Under the pieces are notes generated by a model. The model was not told the DNA's origin. It saw only the letters and a program-made list of their open reading frames with translations, and made no database searches. A stretch of DNA of 64,000 bases, taken from the NCBI GenBank assembly GCA_015060245.1, contig SUYU01000004.1:81658-145657 (forward strand). Direction: 5' to 3'. Position numbers and translations under genes: made by a program. Below are positions 11,906-32,184 of this stretch, one piece after another. The number at the start of each line of letters is the position of its first letter. The stretch's first letter is position 1. Origin of the DNA: Bacteroidales bacterium (GTDB lineage Bacteria > Bacteroidota > Bacteroidia > Bacteroidales > UBA932).

Positions 11906-12502
11906 CTATTTCATCTGTTTCACAGGTGTGTCATATACGGTAAAGTTGCCGTTGGCCTCCTCCATTTTCATTACACATAGTGTAAGGTCTTTCTTGCTGT
12001 AACTCAACTCAAGTTTTACATACTGGCTCTTGGCTCCTTTGCCTTTTGTAATCATGAATACGTAATATTGTGGTGTCTCAAAGAACTTTACCTCTGCCGA
12101 ATTCTCCTTTGCAACACCGTCAACGTCGCCGCCGATGCTCAGAAGCAGGGTATTCTTGAGGTTGCCCATACGGCTGTCCTGTTTGGTAGAGATCTTGTTT
12201 GTCTTTTTGCCCCTTACCATAGTGATATTGTCGCCGCTTATCTCAAGAAGATCGCCGGCAGGGGAGGTGTACTCCATCTTCAAACCGTTGGGACGAGTGT
12301 ATGTAAGGTTTCCTTTGCTTACAAGTTCATTCTCCATCATTACCATATGTTTGGTCTGGGTAAACGGACAGGTAACTGTTGTAAATTTTGCATTGGCTGC
12401 AGCAATCTTGTCAATTGCAGCTTTGCACTCCGATGCATATTGTGCAAATGCTCCTGAACAGCATAGAAGCACTGCAATCATTGTAATGAAAATCCTCTTC
12501 AT
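11906..12502 (-). CDS. LolA-like outer-membrane lipoprotein/lipid carrier
   Basis: A 198-residue protein with a clear signal peptide (MKRIFITMIAVLLCCSGAFAQ, cut after AFA) and the LolA fold pattern: FTQTKHMVMMENELVSKGNLTYTRP, then LKMEYTSP and ITMVRGKK. Such LolA-like proteins are found in aryl-polyene and flexirubin clusters, where they probably carry the lipid product, not lipoproteins, through the periplasm to the outer membrane. It is the last gene of the operon, followed by the bidirectional terminator. The cell-wide LolA may be elsewhere; this assignment to lipid export is inferred from context. Confidence 0.85.
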   Translation of the reverse strand: MKRIFITMIAVLLCCSGAFAQYASECKAAIDKIAAANAKFTTVTCPFTQTKHMVMMENELVSKGNLTYTRPNGLKMEYTSPAGDLLEISGDNITMVRGKKTNKISTKQDSRMGNLKNTLLLSIGGDVDGVAKENSAEVKFFETPQYYVFMITKGKGAKSQYVKLELSYSKKDLTLCVMKMEEANGNFTVYDTPVKQMK

Positions 12503-12555: not shown

Positions 12556-13293
12556 TTATGAGTAAAGGCCTCCGTTGATTGAGATAACCTCTCCTGTGAT
12601 GTATGAAGCATCTTTTGAGGCAAGAAAACCTACAAGGGCAGCCACCTCTTCAGGGTTTCCGAATCTGCCTGCAGGAATCTGTGCTACAAGTTCCTCTTCG
12701 TTGAGACCCTCAACCATATCGGTCTTGATGAATCCAGGTGCAATGGCATTCACTGTTACACCCCTTTTGCCTACCTCCTGAGCCAAAGCCTTTGTAGCGG
12801 CAATTATACCGCCTTTTGCAGCAGAGTAGTTGGTCTGTCCGGGAAGACCTTTAAGGCCGCTGAGCGATGCCATGTTTATTACCCTTCCGAATTTCTTTCT
12901 CAACATTGGCTGGATAAGCGGCTGGGTAACATTGTAGAATGCGTTAAGTCCAATGCCAAGTACCTTGTACCAATCCTCCGACGGCATAAGCGGAAGTATG
13001 TTGTCTTTTCTTATACCCGCATTGTTTACAAGAACCTCAATATATTCTCCCTTGTGGGCAGCCTGCCATCCTGTGATTGCGGCAACTGTCTGCTCAAGGT
13101 TTGAGACATCAAATTTCAAAAGTTCACCTGTGCCGCCGGCCTCTTCAATCAGTTTGATTGTAGCCTCGGCCTGTGCCTCATTTGAAACGTAGTTCACTAT
13201 TACATTATATCCCATAGAGGCAAGTTTAACGCTGACTGCCCTTCCTATTCCGCGGCTTCCGCCGGTTACCAATGCATGTTTCATATTTTTCAA
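12556..13293 (-). CDS. FabG-like 3-oxoacyl-ACP reductase
   Basis: A 245-residue short-chain dehydrogenase. NADP-binding TGGSRGIGRA near the N-terminus, NNAG in the middle, and the catalytic Ser (NMASLSG) and Tyr-Lys (NYSAAKGG), with INGGLYS at the end. The initiator may be either the first ATG or the one three codons later (MKHALVTGG). It would reduce the ketone formed by the ketosynthase on each elongation cycle. Its equivalent in aryl-polyene systems is ApeQ. It sits between the CrtI-like oxidoreductase (120 bases upstream, with tandem repeats in the gap) and the LolA-like gene. Confidence 0.88.
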   Translation of the reverse strand: MKNMKHALVTGGSRGIGRAVSVKLASMGYNVIVNYVSNEAQAEATIKLIEEAGGTGELLKFDVSNLEQTVAAITGWQAAHKGEYIEVLVNNAGIRKDNILPLMPSEDWYKVLGIGLNAFYNVTQPLIQPMLRKKFGRVINMASLSGLKGLPGQTNYSAAKGGIIAATKALAQEVGKRGVTVNAIAPGFIKTDMVEGLNEEELVAQIPAGRFGNPEEVAALVGFLASKDASYITGEVISINGGLYS

Positions 13294-13302
13294 GTTTTAT
13301 TT

Positions 13303-13419
13303 GTTTTCAATCAAGTTTAACGTTTTCCAATTACGGTTATTGTGTTTTCAATTTTAACGTTTTCCTACCACGGTTATTGTGTTTCCAATCAAGTTTATCG
13401 TTTTCCAATTCAGTTATTC
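13303..13419. repeat. Three imperfect 37-41-bp tandem repeats
   Basis: Three adjacent copies start at 13303, 13344 and 13381 with GTTTTCAA(TCAAG)TTTAACGTTTTCC, the first two ending ACGGTTATTGT. The second lacks four bases and the third is degenerate and runs into the 3' end of the oxidoreductase gene. They fill the intergenic gap between that gene and the FabG-like gene in the middle of the operon. Confidence 0.8.
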
Positions 13420-14991
13420 AAACTTCAGGCCATCTGCTGCGGCCTCCATTCCAATAATCTCTGCGCAGGTAAAGAATGAGGTCATGCTTACTCCAAGTAC
13501 ACCATGAAGATTGAGGTTCTGTCCGGTAAGGAAAAGGTCCGGAACAGGAGTCTTTGGTGTGAGGAGAGTAAGCATAAGGTTGCTGTAGTCTTTCCTGATG
13601 CCGTATGCACTTCCGCAGGCTGTTGCAGTGTAGTCTTTGTATGTAAGCGGAGTGCTTGTGTATGAGGCTATTATATTCTCCTTCAGGCCAGGTATTATGC
13701 TCTGCGCAAATTCAATGCACTGCTCCGCCTTTGCCTCTTTGAGTGCCAGGTACTCATCTCCTCTATGGCCCACTTTTGTGCCACTGAAGCGCTCCACTTC
13801 TCCCCAGGTCATTGGGGTAAGAAGATCCAATTGCCCTGCATATGCCTCCTGACAGGTTGATACGTCTTTGGAGTAGTAACTCATGAGCATGGAACGTACG
13901 CCTTGAGGATGGCCGTTTTGAGCATCTGTTGCAGTTGTGCCGCTCCAGAGACTCTCTCCATTGGCCAGATTATGTATATATCTGTTCCGGTTCAGGTATT
14001 TGACCGAATTCTCTTTGAGGGCCAGATTTACCGTAAACATTCCTGTGGTATTCTCCAGACGGTTGATGCGGTTGCGGTATACCTTCCTCACGTGTGCGCT
14101 CTCCTTTATAAGTTCAAGGGTTGCCGACGGATGGAGGTTTGATATTACCTTTTTTGCAAATACATCAATTGTTTCATTGACTTTGAGTTGCAGGCCATTC
14201 TCCTGCTGCTCCCTGATTTCAGTAACCTTGGCTCTTGTACACACAACTCCGCCCATCTTTTCAATGGAGTGGCAAAGTGAGTCGGAAACCATATTTCCGC
14301 CACCTGCAAGCCTGTATGCGCTCTGTATGAATGAACTGTTTATCTGTGCGTAGGTGTAGAGCGGAAGGGCAGGGGTGAGTTCCATCTTCAAGGATGTACC
14401 GGCCAGCACTTCGCGCAAAAGAGGATCGGTTATTGTCTCATTTACAAACTCATAAGCAGAACGCGCAAAGAGTGACTGCGTATATATTGCACCATCATCC
14501 TTGGGCGAAAAACTCTTTGGAAGCGCATCTCCAACCTCCTTTAGAAGCGCCGTATACTTTTTAATGTTCTCTTTCTGATGCGGAAAATACTCTGTCATTC
14601 TTGCTGCAAAGGCCTGATAACCGTTGGCAAACATATATGATTTGCCGTTTACAACCACCTCATCAAATGCGTCGGCATCCATCTTCTGCCAAGGCAGATG
14701 CATAAGTCCAAAGTAGTTGAAGAGAGCATTGAGCGGTTGTCCTTCATCAAGGCCTCCTACATAGTGGAGTCCTGTATCAAATTCGGCCACCCTGGCATGT
14801 GTGCTTGACGCAGGTCTATTTACCTTTCTTCCAAAACTCTGCAGACAGCCTCCCAAAAGGGCATTCTGTTCAAGAATGCACACCTTCAACCCCTTTTTTG
14901 AGAGGATATAACCGCACTGGAGACCTCCGAGACCTCCACCGATGATTGCAACATCAAAGCCTTTGCCGTTAATCTCTTCTGCCTTTACCAT
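13414..14991 (-). CDS. CrtI/phytoene-desaturase-like FAD oxidoreductase
   Basis: A 525-residue flavoprotein. The N-terminal dinucleotide fold reads FDVAIIGGGLGGLQCGYILSK, followed by LEQNALLGGC; the C-terminal FAD-binding region is LFLTGQNLNLHGVLG. It belongs to the COG1233 family with phytoene desaturases and retinol saturases, which act on long polyene or isoprenoid chains. In flexirubin and related clusters a similar gene occurs next to an MMPL exporter. Here it might desaturate or reduce the acyl chain or a tethered alcohol; the reaction is not known. It overlaps the end of the MMPL gene by 23 bases, so the two are translationally coupled. Confidence 0.85.
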   Translation of the reverse strand: MVKAEEINGKGFDVAIIGGGLGGLQCGYILSKKGLKVCILEQNALLGGCLQSFGRKVNRPASSTHARVAEFDTGLHYVGGLDEGQPLNALFNYFGLMHLPWQKMDADAFDEVVVNGKSYMFANGYQAFAARMTEYFPHQKENIKKYTALLKEVGDALPKSFSPKDDGAIYTQSLFARSAYEFVNETITDPLLREVLAGTSLKMELTPALPLYTYAQINSSFIQSAYRLAGGGNMVSDSLCHSIEKMGGVVCTRAKVTEIREQQENGLQLKVNETIDVFAKKVISNLHPSATLELIKESAHVRKVYRNRINRLENTTGMFTVNLALKENSVKYLNRNRYIHNLANGESLWSGTTATDAQNGHPQGVRSMLMSYYSKDVSTCQEAYAGQLDLLTPMTWGEVERFSGTKVGHRGDEYLALKEAKAEQCIEFAQSIIPGLKENIIASYTSTPLTYKDYTATACGSAYGIRKDYSNLMLTLLTPKTPVPDLFLTGQNLNLHGVLGVSMTSFFTCAEIIGMEAAADGLKFE

Positions 14992-17515
14992 TTTTGTATT
15001 TCATATATAGGTTGAACAGGAACGGTTCAACGGTGTATGTTATTATAATGGTAGATGCCATGCCTATAAGTGTAGCAACTCCAATGGAACTGATGGCAGG
15101 ATGGGTTGCAAACATGAGCGAAGCAATGGCAATGATGAGCACAACGGCTGAGAAGAATATTGCGGTCTTGTGGAATCTGAGCAGGTCGGAGGCGTTGTCT
15201 GAATTACCTGCAAGATCTTCTTCGCTCTTTTTGCGGCTTCTGTTGAGAAGGCCGTCCATGACAAAGATGCTGTAATCTACGCCAATTCCAAAGATGAAGG
15301 TTGAGATTACAATATTTATGAGGTTGAACTGCAAGCCGAGGACTCCCATAATTCCCAACACAATATACCAACTCATGCTCATAGGCAGGAATGCTATAAG
15401 TGCTATAACAGGATTCCTGAATGAAAGCAACAGTACAACAAGTACAAAGATTGAGGAGATGGCAAGAACAACATTGAAGTCTTCATTGAGCATCTCAACC
15501 ATATTCTGTGTATAGAAGAAAGGATCTACAACTATCATGTTGTTTGACGGTATCTGTGGAGTCTCCTTTACAAGTTTGTTGCTCACAGGAAGTATATTTT
15601 CAGGTTTGGCCTGTACCGATGTAAATACGAGGTAGGTGCTGTCGGTAACCTCTACAAGGTTGGCCATAAGACCGTCGGGAATAATATTGGCACCGACAAT
15701 GCTGTTGTATTCAAAATCACGCTCCAGCGCCTCTACAAACGGATCAAACATCTGCTCCTTGAAACCATACTCCTTGCCTGCCTTTTTGAGGATTGACTGA
15801 ATGTTTTTCTGCCTTTGAGGGGTCCAGTACTCGCTCCACAATGCAATTCTGCCATTTGCTGTAGAGGATGGAAGAAGGAGCATTGCTGAATTGCTGTATT
15901 TTTCAATCAGACCTTCAGAGGCAAGTTCCGCGCATCTGTTGCCCAATATTGTATTGTATTCAAGAGCAGAATCGAGATCCTTTGAGAGTACAGCAAAGTA
16001 TTTGCTCTCAAGGCCCGGCATTGTCTTTTCTGCAAGCATATGGCCGCTTCGCATTACGTCTGGATCATTGTAGCCGATATTCTTGAGATTTGAGTCAAAG
16101 GTTACCCATTTGCCGGTAAAGAGTGATATTACAAAGATTACGGCAATGAGTGCAACCAGCCATTTATGCTTTTCATACGGGTATGTATTGATCTTTTCAA
16201 TGGCAGCAATTGCCTTATGGTTAAGTCTGTTCCTTTCAGGTTTGAAGAAGTGTGGCAGGAATATCAGACAACAGAGTGTTGTTCCTACCATTCCAAGTGA
16301 CGCAAACATTCCAAAGTCCCAAAGCAGTTCGGATTTTGTGAACAGAAGGCCGGCAAAGGCACCAATGGTGGTAAGACTGCCGAGTATTACCGGTTTGGTC
16401 TGCTCCCTTATTACGCGTTCAGGGTCGCTTACGTATTTGTAGTGGGTAAGTACATGCAGGCAGTAACTCAATGCCACACCGAGCACTATTGCACCGATTC
16501 CAAGCGCCATGAGCGACATTCCACCTTTAATGAAGTACATTCCTGTAAGTGCGAAAAATGCACCATAGACTACAGGAAGCAGCAGCATTACAAGTGTGCT
16601 TTTGTTTCTGAAACAGAACCATATGATAAGACACACGAGTGCGAGTGAAAAACTCAATGTTGTGGCAAGGTCACTCTTTATCTGGCGGCTGTTGAACACA
16701 CTCTGCACAGGGGCTCCATGGAAGAGTATCTCCACGTTTGGATATTGCGCCTCAATTGCCTCTATCTCCTGTTCAAGATTCTCTACGAGGTATGTACCGG
16801 TTTTTGAGTCAAAGGCTTTGAAGTTAGGGGAGAGGAAGGCCAATGCTATGGTGCTGTCGGGTGTAAAGAAGTGGCTTTCAAGGATTTTATATGTTCCTCC
16901 CATCATGCTGGCAATGCCGCTGTTTTGCTGCGCAAATATTTTGCGCAAGACCAACGGATCATTCCTTATTATGTCATAGTAGGCCATGCCCTCTGCCGAT
17001 GTCAGAGTCTGGAGATTTTCATACATGGCCTGATTTGCGTACTCCTGTGTTATGACAGTGTCAATTGCTTCGTAAAATGGTCTGTCAAGGAACTGAGGTA
17101 CATTCTCAAAGAGGAATCCGAGGGCATCCTGAAGCATGTAGCCGTCGAGCCTGTACATAAGGTCTGCAATATACATTGTGGCAGTATCGTGCAGAAGCAA
17201 TGAATCGCAGAAAGCATCACACACTTCAGTCAAGGTGTAGTAATCGGCCTGTTGCCATGTTGAATCCGGCATATCTGCAGGCTTTTCCCTGGCTATGAAC
17301 TCAAGGAATATCTTATCTTTTACCTTGAGGTTGTTGAATGCAAATCCGGCAGATTTGCTCTCTTCTGTAGCAGGAAGCAGTTTAGAGATGTCTTCCTGAT
17401 ATTGGACTTTACTTCCAAAAAAGATAAAAAGCGCTGTAGAGATCAACAGCACTGCATAAAAGAGGCCCTTGTGGCCCTTGAAATACCGGTATAGTTTTAT
17501 CGCTGATTCTGTCAT
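14969..17515 (-). CDS. MMPL/RND-family lipid exporter
   Basis: An 848-residue membrane protein with the RND/MMPL layout: one N-terminal segment, a large periplasmic loop (about 50-270), a block of five segments with ALGIGAIVLGVALSYCLHVLTHY, a second periplasmic loop (about 470-690), and a second block of segments with FIFGIGVDYSIFVMDGLL. The FGIGVDYSIF type motif is typical of MMPL proteins. These move lipids or polyenes from the inner membrane into the periplasm using the ion gradient. In this operon it would hand the product to the LolA-like carrier. Confidence 0.9.
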   Translation of the reverse strand: MTESAIKLYRYFKGHKGLFYAVLLISTALFIFFGSKVQYQEDISKLLPATEESKSAGFAFNNLKVKDKIFLEFIAREKPADMPDSTWQQADYYTLTEVCDAFCDSLLLHDTATMYIADLMYRLDGYMLQDALGFLFENVPQFLDRPFYEAIDTVITQEYANQAMYENLQTLTSAEGMAYYDIIRNDPLVLRKIFAQQNSGIASMMGGTYKILESHFFTPDSTIALAFLSPNFKAFDSKTGTYLVENLEQEIEAIEAQYPNVEILFHGAPVQSVFNSRQIKSDLATTLSFSLALVCLIIWFCFRNKSTLVMLLLPVVYGAFFALTGMYFIKGGMSLMALGIGAIVLGVALSYCLHVLTHYKYVSDPERVIREQTKPVILGSLTTIGAFAGLLFTKSELLWDFGMFASLGMVGTTLCCLIFLPHFFKPERNRLNHKAIAAIEKINTYPYEKHKWLVALIAVIFVISLFTGKWVTFDSNLKNIGYNDPDVMRSGHMLAEKTMPGLESKYFAVLSKDLDSALEYNTILGNRCAELASEGLIEKYSNSAMLLLPSSTANGRIALWSEYWTPQRQKNIQSILKKAGKEYGFKEQMFDPFVEALERDFEYNSIVGANIIPDGLMANLVEVTDSTYLVFTSVQAKPENILPVSNKLVKETPQIPSNNMIVVDPFFYTQNMVEMLNEDFNVVLAISSIFVLVVLLLSFRNPVIALIAFLPMSMSWYIVLGIMGVLGLQFNLINIVISTFIFGIGVDYSIFVMDGLLNRSRKKSEEDLAGNSDNASDLLRFHKTAIFFSAVVLIIAIASLMFATHPAISSIGVATLIGMASTIIITYTVEPFLFNLYMKYKNGKGRRD

Positions 17516-17525
17516 GTCATATATG

Positions 17526-17552
17526 AAAAAGCACCGGCTTATTTTGCCGGTG
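17526..17552 (-). terminator. Attenuator-like hairpin between hot-dog gene and exporter gene
   Basis: On the minus strand CACCGGC-AAAATAA-GCCGGTG, followed by CTTTTTC, spans the stop codon of the second hot-dog gene and ends just before the exporter ATG. It has the shape of an intrinsic terminator but lies inside the operon, so it may reduce read-through from biosynthesis to export genes. Confidence 0.55.
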
Positions 17553-17940
17553 TAAGTTCTCCACTTATATCCAAATATTTGACTTCAGGATTCTCCAGGG
17601 TACAAACTGAAGCCTTGATTTTGTATATCTGCGTTGGGTCATCTTCTGCAGCAGGTGCAAGTGCAATATCAATCTCAAGATCCCTGCTCTTTTGAGGGGA
17701 CATAACCTCCAGAAGCCTGTATTGCTTCACATAACTGAAGGTCAGTTCTTTATTGCACAATTGCATGGCACACTCCTTTACCATCTGCATGCTGCATACG
17801 CCCGGACATACCGGCTCGCCGGGAAAGTGTCCCTGGTATACAGGATGCTCCTCTATAAGTTCAACCCTGAATTTTCCCGACAAACTCTCCTGTGACAAAG
17901 TGGTGCCTGTTATTTTGAAATATGTGTTGAGTAGATTCAT
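17539..17940 (-). CDS. Hot-dog dehydratase-like protein, His-only half site
   Basis: A 133-residue FabZ/ApeI-like hot-dog protein. GHFPGEPVCPGV carries the catalytic His (H38). The acidic residue of the FabZ pair, 14 residues later, is Gln here (Q52 in CSMQMVKE), so the canonical His/Glu couple is incomplete. The preceding gene, 12 bases upstream, encodes a second hot-dog protein with the Glu but without the His. In FabZ the active site is shared across the dimer, so the two may form a heterodimer with one complete site. It would dehydrate the 3-hydroxyacyl-ACP intermediate. Confidence 0.8.
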   Translation of the reverse strand: MNLLNTYFKITGTTLSQESLSGKFRVELIEEHPVYQGHFPGEPVCPGVCSMQMVKECAMQLCNKELTFSYVKQYRLLEVMSPQKSRDLEIDIALAPAAEDDPTQIYKIKASVCTLENPEVKYLDISGELTPAK

Positions 17941-17952
17941 TTTAAGGAAGTT

Positions 17953-18366
17953 TTATCCTCTTATAAATATTTTCATCTGACAAGTGGCTGCAACCTCTCC
18001 ATTTACAGACGTGCCGGCACTTATAAGTGTAATGCCCATGGCCTCCGATACCACTTTTATCTCTGTTGAAAGGGTATCTCCAACTTTGGGCAAAAAGTTG
18101 AGTGTGAACTTCTTCACCTCTCCAATAAATCCTACAGGAGCCTCCTTGCCCTGTGATTTGTATTTGTACCCCTCCATAGCCGAGGCCGATTGTGCCATGT
18201 GTTCAATTATTCCGGCCTCACACATCCTCTCTCCGTTGAGGAACATATTGTCCTCTCTGACAGACAACAGTGTAGTGGCACCCTCTGCGGATGCACTACA
18301 CAATTTGTCTACCATCATAATAGGATTGCGTTGAGGGATAAGGTCACTAATTGTCCATTCTCTCAT
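17953..18366 (-). CDS. Hot-dog dehydratase-like protein (ApeP type), Glu-only half site
   Basis: The track begins at 18456, inside the ACP gene; the family start is MREWTISDLIPQRNP at 18366, giving 137 residues and a 20-base overlap with the ACP gene. The opening IPQRNPIMMVD matches the FabZ/ApeP N-terminus, and EAGIIEHMAQS has the Glu (E55) of the catalytic pair. The GHFPG segment is replaced by MFLNGERMC, so no catalytic His is present, as in ApeP-type COG4706 proteins. It probably acts with the next gene product as a split dehydratase on ACP-bound chains. Confidence 0.8.
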   Translation of the reverse strand: MREWTISDLIPQRNPIMMVDKLCSASAEGATTLLSVREDNMFLNGERMCEAGIIEHMAQSASAMEGYKYKSQGKEAPVGFIGEVKKFTLNFLPKVGDTLSTEIKVVSEAMGITLISAGTSVNGEVAATCQMKIFIRG

Positions 18367-18592
18367 AAACGAAATCGTAAAGTTGTCCGAAAGTCTTGAT
18401 GGAAGCCACCTCTGTGCCTTTGATTTTAACACCGAATGTCTCCTCAATAAGAGCAACCATGTCTACAAGGCTAAGGCTGTCCAAATCCAATGATTTTTTG
18501 ATGTCAGCCTCTGGAGTGATAACTTCTGTTTCAACTTCAAACTCTTCTGCCAAAACCTCAATGGTCTTTGCAATCATTTCTTCTTTAGTCAT
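18347..18592 (-). CDS. Acyl carrier protein
   Basis: An 81-residue acidic four-helix carrier. The phosphopantetheine attachment Ser is S39 in LDLDSLSLVD. It is a dedicated ACP, distinct from the housekeeping AcpP by its location, and would carry the growing chain between ketosynthase, reductase and dehydratase. The gene is 58 bases after the ketosynthase gene and overlaps the following dehydratase gene by 20 bases. Confidence 0.92.
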   Translation of the reverse strand: MTKEEMIAKTIEVLAEEFEVETEVITPEADIKKSLDLDSLSLVDMVALIEETFGVKIKGTEVASIKTFGQLYDFVYERMDN

Positions 18593-18650: not shown

Positions 18651-19871
18651 TTACAGGTTCCTTATTATAAGTGTAGAGTTTGTTCCTCCAAAACCGAATG
18701 AGTTTGAAAGGAATGTGTCAAACTTCTTCTCCACTCTCTTGCCTGGGATGTTCAATTTTGCAGAATCCTCATCGGGGTTCTCAAAGTTGATGTTTGCACC
18801 AATGAAATCATTTTTCATCATAAGTGTAGAGTAGATGATCTCAGAAGCGCCTGCCATCCACATCTCGTGGCCGGTCTGTGATTTGGTTGATGTAACCTCT
18901 GGCATATTGTCTCCAAACACCTGGTAGATAGCCTTGGCCTCGTTTGCGTCACCTTTAGGTGTTGATGTTGCGTGTGCATTGATATAGCCAATCTCCCTCT
19001 TGTCTATGTTGGCAAGTCTTAGAGCCATTTCCAAAGAGCGTGCAGGGCCGTCAACATTAGGAACCGAAATATGGTCGCCGTTTGAAGAGAAGCCGTAACT
19101 CAATACCTCTGCAATAATAGGGGCACCCCTTCTTACTGCGCTCTCATAACTCTCTATGATGACAGTAGCGGCTCCACCACCCGGAACAAGACCGTCACGG
19201 TCGCGGTCAAAAGGTCGTGATGCCTTTGTAGGGTCGCTCTCTCTGATTGAGAATGCGCTTATGCCGTCAAAACTTCCAATCGAGAATGGGTTTACCTCCT
19301 GTGCACCACCGCAGATTACCATATCCTGAAGGCCGTTCTTAATGAGCAATGCTCCCAAACCGATTGCGTGAGAACCACTTGCGCATGCTCCGGAAACGGT
19401 AAGGTTCATGCCTTTTAGTTTGAAGATACAAGCAAGGTTCATTGTAACGGTTGAGTTCATTGACTGGAAAATTGCACCTGAACCAACAAGTGTGGTATCT
19501 CTCTTCTCGCGCATTGTATCAACACTTTTTACAACAGGATCTGCACTGCTGTCGTTTCCATAAAGGATACCTACCTCGTGTGAATTCAAATAATCCTGGT
19601 CAATGTTTGCATGTCTGAGGGCATCAACTGTAGCGCAATAGGCATATTTTGCCTGCTCCGGCATATATACTCTCTGACTTCTGCTAAGTTCCTTTTTCAA
19701 ATCAGGAATCTCAAGATGTGCAGTAAGTGCAGATCTGAAACCCATCTCTTTTCTTACAGGGTCAAATATAATTCCCGATTTTCCGTGATATAGAGAATCT
19801 CTTACCTCATCAAGTGTCTTGCCCAAGCAAGAGTAGATTCCCATACCTGTAATAACAACTCTTCTTTCCAT
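18651..19871 (-). CDS. Beta-ketoacyl-ACP synthase (FabF-like)
   Basis: A 406-residue thiolase-fold ketosynthase. Active-site Cys is C163 in SGACASGSHAIG, with His residues H300 (NAHATSTPKGD) and H335 (SQTGHEMWMAGASE). The segment after the second His departs from the usual GHLLGAAG. All three catalytic residues are present, so it should be active. Type II aryl-polyene systems pair such a ketosynthase with a chain-length factor lacking the Cys; no such partner is seen here, so it may act as a homodimer. It lies between the acyltransferase and ACP genes. Confidence 0.92.
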   Translation of the reverse strand: MERRVVITGMGIYSCLGKTLDEVRDSLYHGKSGIIFDPVRKEMGFRSALTAHLEIPDLKKELSRSQRVYMPEQAKYAYCATVDALRHANIDQDYLNSHEVGILYGNDSSADPVVKSVDTMREKRDTTLVGSGAIFQSMNSTVTMNLACIFKLKGMNLTVSGACASGSHAIGLGALLIKNGLQDMVICGGAQEVNPFSIGSFDGISAFSIRESDPTKASRPFDRDRDGLVPGGGAATVIIESYESAVRRGAPIIAEVLSYGFSSNGDHISVPNVDGPARSLEMALRLANIDKREIGYINAHATSTPKGDANEAKAIYQVFGDNMPEVTSTKSQTGHEMWMAGASEIIYSTLMMKNDFIGANINFENPDEDSAKLNIPGKRVEKKFDTFLSNSFGFGGTNSTLIIRNL

Positions 19872-19929: not shown

Positions 19930-21294
19930 CTATTTTTTCTTGAATACTATATCAAGTCTCTTCCACAATTCATCATGCAATTGCTGCAACTCTTTGCCTT
20001 TTGCAGAGGCAGAAGAGCGTAGCCATCTCAAATCCCGTGCAATCTTTACAATAAATTTGGTGTATTTGCATGCAATAATGGCCAATAACGGCAGTAGTGC
20101 TACATGGGCGAGTGCCAATAGCCATGAACCGGTGCTGAAAAATGTGATCAGCAGTGTGGCAATAGTGAATATTGGAATGAAAAACAGTACGTTGAATGCA
20201 AAATAGTATGTTCCGAGGAACATGATGTCGGTACTCATTTTCTTATGCATCAACTTTGGAATTGCATAGAGGAAGAGAGCAGGCCACAATGAGAAGATGT
20301 ATACCTCAATAAATACTATTGCCAATAGCGCCTTAAGCAGAGTGCATATGGCCGAAGATCTCTTTTCCAATGCTTCACTTCTGATTCCCAATTTCTTGAC
20401 ACCCTCTTTTTCTCGGGATGCCAGATCATATATGGCAGCAGCCTGTTCCGGATTCTCGCGGTTGAACTCATCAAGTCTTTTGCAGAACTCCTTGTCAGAG
20501 ACAAGCATATCAGGAAGGTAATTTGTGTCGGTACCTTTTTGCGCTGCATAACTCTTTCCGTATGTTGTGCGGATGTAATCTATTGAGTCATAGTTGTCCA
20601 GATCCTCAATATTGAGCATAAGGGCGCTTATCTTCTCCTTTACAAGGGCGTTGATCTCTCTCTTCACAGTGCGAGGTTTGCTCTTGTAGCGCTCATAATA
20701 TGGCTTCAATGAGATAGGCTCGCCAAACTTGACCATAAACTGGCCTTGGATATCAGTATAGTTCGTATAGTGGTTGCAAGAAGGGAGGATAAAGATTTCT
20801 GTATTGAAATTATCCATCTCCGCTGCCTCAAATGCAAGTTTAAGGTAACCTTGGGAGAAGTGTCCCAACCATCTTTTGTCCTGATGGCCGGCCTCGGGGA
20901 ACATGATTATGGTCCTTCCTTCTACAAGTTCACGCTCGGTTACTTTAAAGGTTTCGTCATTTTGTCCCAAGGCACCCTCTCCTTCATAATCAAGACGGAA
21001 TGCAGGAAGCAATCCTATTGACCTGAGGAACTTGTTTGCAATAGGGTGGATGGCAAAGACATCGGCCCTTGTTATGAAATGAGGCTTTCTGTCCCTGATT
21101 GTAAAGAGTACTCCAAGCGGGTCATTAAGGCAGTTCTGATGGTTCGAAACAACAATTACTGGTGTTCCGTCAGCCGGAATGTTCTCATAATTTATGGAGT
21201 ATGTCTTTTGGTAATATACCTTGTTGTGGGTAAACCTCAAGTATGATTTAAATATACTGTAGATTAATCCAGGTTTATTATTTTTTTGACTCAT
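19930..21294 (-). CDS. PlsC-type acyltransferase with C-terminal membrane domain
   Basis: A 454-residue protein. Residues 20-215 form a 1-acyl-glycerol-3-phosphate acyltransferase (PlsC) domain: VVSNHQNCLNDPLG (the catalytic His/Asp site, spaced as in other Bacteroidota homologues), then IIMFPEAGHQ and FILPSCNHY. The C-terminal half, from about 325 to 415, has three or four membrane segments. Such acyltransferases occur in flexirubin/aryl-polyene clusters and probably attach the finished chain to a lipid or glycan head group in the inner membrane. It is the first gene of the operon, with the promoter about 55 bases upstream. Confidence 0.88.
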   Translation of the reverse strand: MSQKNNKPGLIYSIFKSYLRFTHNKVYYQKTYSINYENIPADGTPVIVVSNHQNCLNDPLGVLFTIRDRKPHFITRADVFAIHPIANKFLRSIGLLPAFRLDYEGEGALGQNDETFKVTERELVEGRTIIMFPEAGHQDKRWLGHFSQGYLKLAFEAAEMDNFNTEIFILPSCNHYTNYTDIQGQFMVKFGEPISLKPYYERYKSKPRTVKREINALVKEKISALMLNIEDLDNYDSIDYIRTTYGKSYAAQKGTDTNYLPDMLVSDKEFCKRLDEFNRENPEQAAAIYDLASREKEGVKKLGIRSEALEKRSSAICTLLKALLAIVFIEVYIFSLWPALFLYAIPKLMHKKMSTDIMFLGTYYFAFNVLFFIPIFTIATLLITFFSTGSWLLALAHVALLPLLAIIACKYTKFIVKIARDLRWLRSSASAKGKELQQLHDELWKRLDIVFKKK

Positions 21295-32043: not shown

Positions 32044-32148
32044 AAAAAAAAGGGTAAGCTGAATATATCGCACCGCTACAACCACATACCCTTGCTGCCT
32101 TCCGGCCCTGGGGGAGTTCTGCAGGAGCTGGTCGTATATGACTTACCC
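32044..32148 (-). ncRNA. ffs: Signal recognition particle RNA (small 4.5S type)
   Basis: On the minus strand the conserved tip CAGGGCCGGAAGGCAGCAAGGG matches the SRP RNA apical loop and symmetric internal loop that bind Ffh. The 5' end GGGTAAG pairs with CTTACCC at the 3' end, giving one long hairpin of about 97 nt, followed by a T run (32044-32050) that acts as terminator. It targets membrane proteins co-translationally together with Ffh. The ORF track shows only spurious frames across it (31999-32214 and 32076-32438). Confidence 0.92.
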
Positions 32149-32153
32149 GACTG

Positions 32154-32184
32154 CAAAGGTAAGCAAATTTCCATTAAAAACAAG
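32154..32184 (-). promoter_or_regulatory. Promoter of the SRP RNA gene
   Basis: Minus strand CTTG, 19 bases, TACCTTTG; the RNA 5' G (32148) lies 6 bases after the -7 box, the expected distance. This supports both the promoter form and the RNA 5' end. Confidence 0.8.

What the first reader, a model, noticed from the sequence alone, without database searches (positions are those of the whole stretch)
17539..18366. Split His/Glu catalytic pair across two adjacent hot-dog proteins
Seen: the second hot-dog protein keeps GHFPGEPVCPGV with His38 but has Gln52 where FabZ has Glu (exactly 14 residues later). The first has the Glu (E55 in GIIEHMAQ) but no GHFPG motif. Known: FabZ sites combine His from one chain and Glu from the other. 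Inference: the two gene products, encoded 12 bases apart, form an obligate heterodimer with one working composite site and one dead site, which would force a particular geometry on the chain-handling complex.
Basis: partly seen in the sequence, partly recalled or inferred. Interest (0 to 1): 0.72.

Follow-up and report, generated by a model that had tools for sequence, protein, structure and literature searches.

The report
Split dehydratase pair, ApeI/ApeP type
Two neighbouring genes most likely encode the two halves of one lipid or pigment dehydratase, one supplying the catalytic histidine and the other the glutamate; this arrangement is already known from the aryl-polyene enzymes ApeI/ApeP, but some relatives have kept the pair after losing the catalytic loop and the rest of the pathway, which is unexpected.

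Summary
HD1 (17953-18366, -) has E55 in GIIEHMAQ and no GHFPG; HD2 (17539-17940, -) has H38 in GHFPG and Q52 fourteen residues later; the genes lie 12 bases apart. The split is conserved: Glu in 16/16 HD1 relatives from intact clusters (GHF in none), His in 40/40 HD2 relatives. It is not new. HD1 is ApeP-like and HD2 is ApeI-like; the Xenorhabdus ApeI:P heterocomplex is solved (PDB 6QSR), and the literature describes ApeI/ApeP as heterodimers with a single active site. Enterobacterial ApeP and ApeI show the same split. An AlphaFold2 model of the read-through fusion gives one confident double hot-dog (pTM 0.89), but catalytic distances could not be measured. Differences: HD2 has Gln where ApeI keeps an acid, and the cluster is reduced, with no second ketosynthase. 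Less expected: five genomes of the same genus appear to have lost the rest of the cluster yet keep the pair under purifying selection, with the His motif gone in all five and Glu replaced in three.

The parts
17953..18366 (-). HD1, ApeP-like hot-dog subunit: donates Glu, no GHFPG motif
18202..18204 (-). codon of Glu55 in GIIEHMAQ, aligned to ApeP Glu and FabZ Glu
17539..17940 (-). HD2, ApeI-like hot-dog subunit: donates His in GHFPGEPVCPGV
17827..17829 (-). codon of His38
17785..17787 (-). codon of Gln52, at the place of the FabZ Glu
18347..18592 (-). acyl carrier protein; its 3' end overlaps the start of HD1
   Evidence: PP-binding 3.9e-12
18651..19871 (-). single cluster ketosynthase; Cys/His/His triad motifs read from the sequence
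19930..21294 (-). PlsC-type acyltransferase
   Evidence: PF01553 4.2e-14
14969..17515 (-). MMPL/RND-type exporter
   Evidence: PF03176 1.5e-23
13414..14991 (-). CrtD/phytoene-desaturase-like FAD oxidoreductase
12556..13293 (-). ketoreductase, over the cut-off for FlxB (flexirubin SDR reductase, NF053542)
   Evidence: 391 bits, cut-off 340
11906..12502 (-). LolA-like carrier, just under the cut-off for flexirubin LolA2 (NF053544)
   Evidence: 109.5 bits, cut-off 125

Best explanation
HD1 and HD2 are the two subunits of one heterodimeric beta-hydroxyacyl-ACP dehydratase of the ApeP/ApeI type, working in a reduced flexirubin/aryl-polyene-like type II pathway (KS, ACP, FlxB-type ketoreductase, MMPL exporter, LolA, PlsC, CrtD-like oxidoreductase). 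The chains associate side by side as a double hot-dog. H38 of HD2 and E55 of HD1 meet at the interface and form the only working site, which dehydrates the chain on the cluster ACP after each FlxB-type reduction. The second interface site has neither His (HD1 lacks it) nor an acid (HD2 has Gln52) and is dead. Shown here: the residues, their conservation, the homology to ApeP and ApeI, the cluster context and a confident double hot-dog model of the fused chains. Inferred: pairing in the cell, catalysis and substrate.
For: Profile comparison pairs HD1 with ApeP (score 58) and not with ApeI, and HD2 with ApeI (70) and not with ApeP; HD1-ApeP exceeds HD1-FabZ (52) and ApeP-FabZ (43). In these alignments HD1 E55 lies on the Glu of ApeP and FabZ, and HD2 H38 on the His of ApeI and FabZ. 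The HD2 profile's best solved structure is 6qsr_A, and HD1's profile reaches 6qsr_B. The entry is titled 'The Dehydratase Heterocomplex ApeI:P from Xenorhabdus doucetiae', and its ApeP chain is the best single-hot-dog structural match to the fused model (TMt 0.82, rmsd 1.8). Enterobacterial ApeP: Glu 82/82 and no GHF in register; ApeI: His 82/82. The read-through fusion is predicted with pLDDT 90.3 and pTM 0.89. The genes are adjacent, HD1 first, in 10/10 minimal clusters (window plus nine; gaps -23 to +28 nt). Pathway context. Prior report of single-site ApeI/ApeP heterodimers: PMC8041823.
Against: No binding or activity data exist for these proteins. Five of 40 HD2 relatives have Glu at the Q52 position, and ApeI itself usually has Asp there, so an HD2-like homodimer could be self-sufficient in those species. 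HD2 is about as close to FabZ (77) as to ApeI (70) by profile score.
Confidence: 0.85

Rival explanations
1. HadAB-like division of labour: HD2 carries all the catalysis and HD1 only binds the chain, so E55 is not catalytic.
For: In mycobacterial HadAB one subunit carries both catalytic residues and the other binds the chain (PMC4491049).
Against: HD2 has no acid at the FabZ-Glu position in 35/40 relatives, while the HD1 Glu is kept in 16/16 and in 82/82 ApeP. A mere binding subunit would not need an invariant Glu in exactly that register.
Confidence: 0.08
2. HD2 pairs with the housekeeping FabZ of the same genome, and HD1 has another role.
For: The genome has one canonical FabZ elsewhere (C26).
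Against: HD1 and HD2 are neighbours in 10/10 minimal clusters, and five genomes that lost most of the cluster kept exactly these two genes together. FabZ already has a full site and no need of a partner.
Confidence: 0.03
3. The two proteins act as independent homodimers (for example HD2 as a thioesterase-like hot-dog) and are only co-transcribed.
For: Hot-dog proteins commonly form homodimers; in most full flexirubin-type clusters examined the two genes lie 5.6-6.4 kb apart.
Against: The complementary loss of His in one and acid in the other is conserved across Bacteroidota and mirrors ApeI/ApeP, which form a solved heterocomplex.
Confidence: 0.04

Closest known systems
ApeI:ApeP dehydratase heterocomplex of aryl-polyene clusters (PDB 6QSR, Xenorhabdus doucetiae; E. 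coli CFT073 c1196/c1188; Acinetobacter ApeH/ApeP)
   Same: His in a GHF motif on one hot-dog protein, Glu without GHF on the other; two-way profile match; single-site heterodimer reported (PMC8041823)
   Different: The ApeI-like subunit has Gln at H+14 (Q 32/40 in Bacteroidota), whereas enterobacterial ApeI has D 72, E 9, N 1; genes adjacent here, about 7 kb apart in E. coli; the cluster lacks an ApeC-like chain length factor
Flexirubin clusters of Bacteroidota (Flavobacterium, Chitinophaga)
   Same: FlxB-type reductase over its cut-off, LolA2-like carrier, MMPL exporter, CrtD-like oxidoreductase, ACP, KS, the same two hot-dog families
   Different: Only one cluster KS; the whole genome has two KS (one FabF-like); no aromatic lyase or acyl-CoA ligase in the cluster
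FabZ
   Same: Hot-dog fold, His and Glu in the same alignment columns, His-to-acid spacing of 14
   Different: FabZ has both residues in each chain and two sites per homodimer
Mycobacterial HadAB
   Same: Two hot-dog proteins, heterodimer, one active site
   Different: Both catalytic residues (Asp36, His41) are on HadB; different motif

Membership tests
ApeI/ApeP heterodimeric dehydratase | ApeI-type subunit: hot-dog protein with the catalytic His in GHFxxxPxxPGV | tested here: met
   H38; His 40/40 in relatives; HD2-ApeI profile score 70; best PDB profile hit 6qsr_A
ApeI/ApeP heterodimeric dehydratase | ApeP-type subunit: hot-dog protein without GHF but with Glu in xxExMAQ | tested here: met
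   E55; Glu 16/16, GHF 0/16; HD1-ApeP score 58 over FabZ 52; 6qsr_B best single-domain structural match
ApeI/ApeP heterodimeric dehydratase | stable heterodimer with one composite site | tested here: inconclusive
   Fused-chain AF2 model confident (pLDDT 90.3, pTM 0.89), but tethered and without coordinates; no binding data
ApeI/ApeP heterodimeric dehydratase | dehydration of beta-hydroxyacyl-ACP by the pair | not testable with these tools
   needs an enzyme assay
Canonical aryl-polyene gene cluster | KS-chain length factor pair (ApeO-ApeC) and aromatic starter loading (ApeH) | tested here: not met
   only one KS in the cluster and two KS in the genome; the genome's single aromatic lyase and its acyl-CoA ligases lie on other contigs
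Flexirubin cluster | FlxB-type SDR reductase | tested here: met
   NF053542, 391 bits, cut-off 340
Flexirubin cluster | polyene priming genes (FlxA lyase, FlxY ligase) and several KS genes in the cluster | tested here: not met
   no such genes in the cluster, one cluster KS; DarA/DarB were not searched for by name
FabZ | His and Glu in one chain, over the curated FabZ cut-off | tested here: not met
   41 and 22 bits, cut-off 113; complementary residues missing
HadAB | hydratase-2 motif with the Asp-His dyad on one subunit | tested here: not met
   the HD2 motif is FabA/FabZ-type GHFPG; no hydratase-2 motif

The most novel reading that the evidence does not exclude
In part of this genus the ApeP/ApeI-like pair has been turned into a catalytically dead hot-dog heterodimer. 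Five genomes (G400, G401, G402, G404, G419) show no cluster ketosynthase and no cluster exporter anywhere, and where flanks could be compared the hot-dog pair lies alone between the same neighbours that flank the whole cluster in G411. In all five the GHFPG motif of HD2 is gone (deleted in four, overwritten in one), and in three the HD1 Glu is D, D or N. Yet both frames are intact, dN/dS is about 0.1-0.2, and the stripped HD2 is still predicted as a hot-dog (pLDDT 92.7). The dimer would have a non-enzymatic job, for example binding an acyl chain or ACP in connection with the DUF5686 protein encoded downstream.
Probability: 0.4. Interest if true: 0.65.

Novelty: new member of a known kind. Interest (0 to 1): 0.42.

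Why it matters
It moves the single-site ApeI/ApeP design from Proteobacteria to Bacteroidota, in a smaller cluster where the two residues are separated completely (Gln on the His subunit), so complementation between subunits could be tested with little background from either alone. The stripped pairs in sister genomes, if they are a working non-enzymatic dimer, would be a natural case of a metabolic heterodimer outliving its pathway.

Tried and rejected
Independent FabZ-like enzymes: rejected, both fall far below FabZ cut-offs and each lacks one catalytic residue. HadAB-type: rejected on motif. Pfam and NCBIfam gave no ApeI or ApeP model hit, so membership was tested by profile comparison. The 6QSR paper (Grammbitter 2019, JACS) is not in the library, so its residue-level conclusions could not be read; I rely on the PDB title and PMC8041823. 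The first fused alignment (A5) misplaced HD2 N-termini and was replaced by A6. Model coordinates are not exposed, so no distances. Four ApeP sequences containing 'GHF' were checked: it lies in another part of the protein, not at the motif. The E. coli stretch L063 has at its edge part of a gene annotated as an enterotoxin; it was not read or used. Pseudogene reading of the stripped pairs: intact frames in five genomes and dN/dS of 0.11 (HD2) and 0.18 (HD1) between G402 and G401 argue against it, though synonymous sites are near saturation in most comparisons.

Full report
Observation. Two hot-dog genes lie on the minus strand: HD1 at 17953-18366 (137 aa) and HD2 at 17539-17940 (133 aa), 12 bases apart and in frame. 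HD1 has E55 in GIIEHMAQ and no GHFPG. HD2 has H38 in GHFPGEPVCPGV and Q52 fourteen residues later.

Context. Upstream in the same direction are an ACP (overlapping the HD1 start), a ketosynthase and a PlsC-type acyltransferase. Downstream are an MMPL exporter, a CrtD-like FAD oxidoreductase, a ketoreductase over the NCBI cut-off for the flexirubin reductase FlxB, and a LolA protein just below the cut-off for the flexirubin LolA2. The genome has only two ketosynthases, this one and a FabF-like one. Its single aromatic lyase and its acyl-CoA ligases are on other contigs. The cluster is therefore flexirubin/aryl-polyene-like but reduced; its product is unknown. The genome also has one canonical FabZ elsewhere.

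Relatives. Homologues were gathered from Bacteroidota genomes and 80 enterobacterial aryl-polyene loci. In intact Bacteroidota clusters HD1 keeps Glu in 16/16 and has GHF in 0/16; HD2 keeps His in 40/40, with Q 32, E 5, L 1, S 1, A 1 at H+14. Enterobacterial ApeP has Glu in 82/82; ApeI has His in 82/82 and D 72, E 9, N 1 at H+14. Profile-profile comparison pairs HD1 with ApeP (58) over FabZ (52), and HD2 with ApeI (70) and FabZ (77); HD1 does not match ApeI and HD2 does not match ApeP. The alignments put HD1 E55 on the ApeP and FabZ Glu, and HD2 H38 on the ApeI and FabZ His.

Structure. The HD2 profile's best solved relative is 6qsr_A and HD1's profile reaches 6qsr_B. The two chains, read through the stop between them, are predicted as one confident double hot-dog (pLDDT 90.3, pTM 0.89; linker pLDDT below 50). 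In the PDB this model's best single-hot-dog match is 6qsr_B, 'The Dehydratase Heterocomplex ApeI:P from Xenorhabdus doucetiae' (TMt 0.82, rmsd 1.8), ahead of every FabZ; the top hit over both halves is the fatty-acid-synthase dehydratase model 2cf2_C (TMq 0.71). The fusion tethers the chains, and coordinates are not exposed, so the site itself was not measured.

What is known. Real differences here are the Gln at H+14, the adjacency of the two genes (10/10 minimal clusters; 5.6-6.4 kb apart in four of five full flexirubin-type clusters), and the small cluster. In four genomes placed in the same class, two tandem HD1-type genes, both with Glu and without GHF, accompany a single HD2 about 12 kb away, so one His subunit may serve two Glu subunits (inference).

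Stripped pairs. In five genomes of the same genus (G400, G401, G402, G404, G419) neither the cluster KS nor the MMPL exporter is found in the genome (only the FabF-like KS at about 34% identity, and one marginal partial exporter hit of E 1e-3 with a stop in G419). HD1 and HD2 are nonetheless still adjacent and open. In the intact genome G411 the whole cluster lies between a formate-THF-ligase-like gene and a DUF5686 gene; in G419 and G402 only HD1-HD2 remain between the same two genes (86-87% and 80-82% identity). The same DUF5686 gene follows the pair in G404 and G401 too. The HD2 GHFPG motif is deleted in four and overwritten in one; the HD1 Glu is D, D and N in G402, G401 and G419, and kept in G404 and G400. 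HD1 of three of these is also shortened at its N-terminus. dN/dS between G402 and G401 is 0.11 for HD2 and 0.18 for HD1. A DUF5686 tree puts G404 apart from the other stripped genomes, with active G411 and G417 grouping with the latter (support 0.94-0.96, long outgroup branch), which suggests the cluster was lost more than once, each time leaving the pair. The stripped HD2 of G402 is still predicted as a hot-dog (pLDDT 92.7), with weak best matches among FabA/FabZ and thioesterases. These genomes are estimated 84-90% complete, so absence of the other genes is likely but not certain.

Verdict. A correct and well-read observation of a known design: an ApeP/ApeI-type single-site heterodimeric dehydratase in a reduced flexirubin-like cluster. 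The new element is the stripped pair in sister genomes, whose function is unknown; a non-enzymatic acyl or ACP binding role is my inference only.

Noticed in passing
L074 9682-10496, L075 10030-10687, L076 10009-10669, L077 6291-7021, L099 about 1200-1869: Same-genus genomes keep an HD1-HD2 pair without the rest of the cluster, with the His loop gone and Glu often replaced, under purifying selection.
   Followed up: partly
L230 12602-13853, L231 733-1677, L232 13628-14595, L233 12445-13384: Four full flexirubin-type loci carry two tandem ApeP-like genes (both Glu, no GHF) and one ApeI-like gene about 12 kb away.
   Followed up: partly
L052 1390-2535: An HD2-like domain is fused to a family 2 glycosyltransferase domain; five similar long frames (371-392 aa) occur in other genomes of the genus.
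   Followed up: partly
L004, L005, L037, L038, L045 HD2 homologues: These HD2 relatives have Glu at the Q52 position and so could have a complete site as homodimers.
   Followed up: yes
L067 148-6800: G416 carries a second KS/ACP/ApeP-like set beside the minimal cluster on the same contig.
   Followed up: no
window 32048-32155 (-): Bacteroidales small SRP RNA (Rfam RF04183, 110.5 bits), which places the window in Bacteroidales.
   Followed up: no
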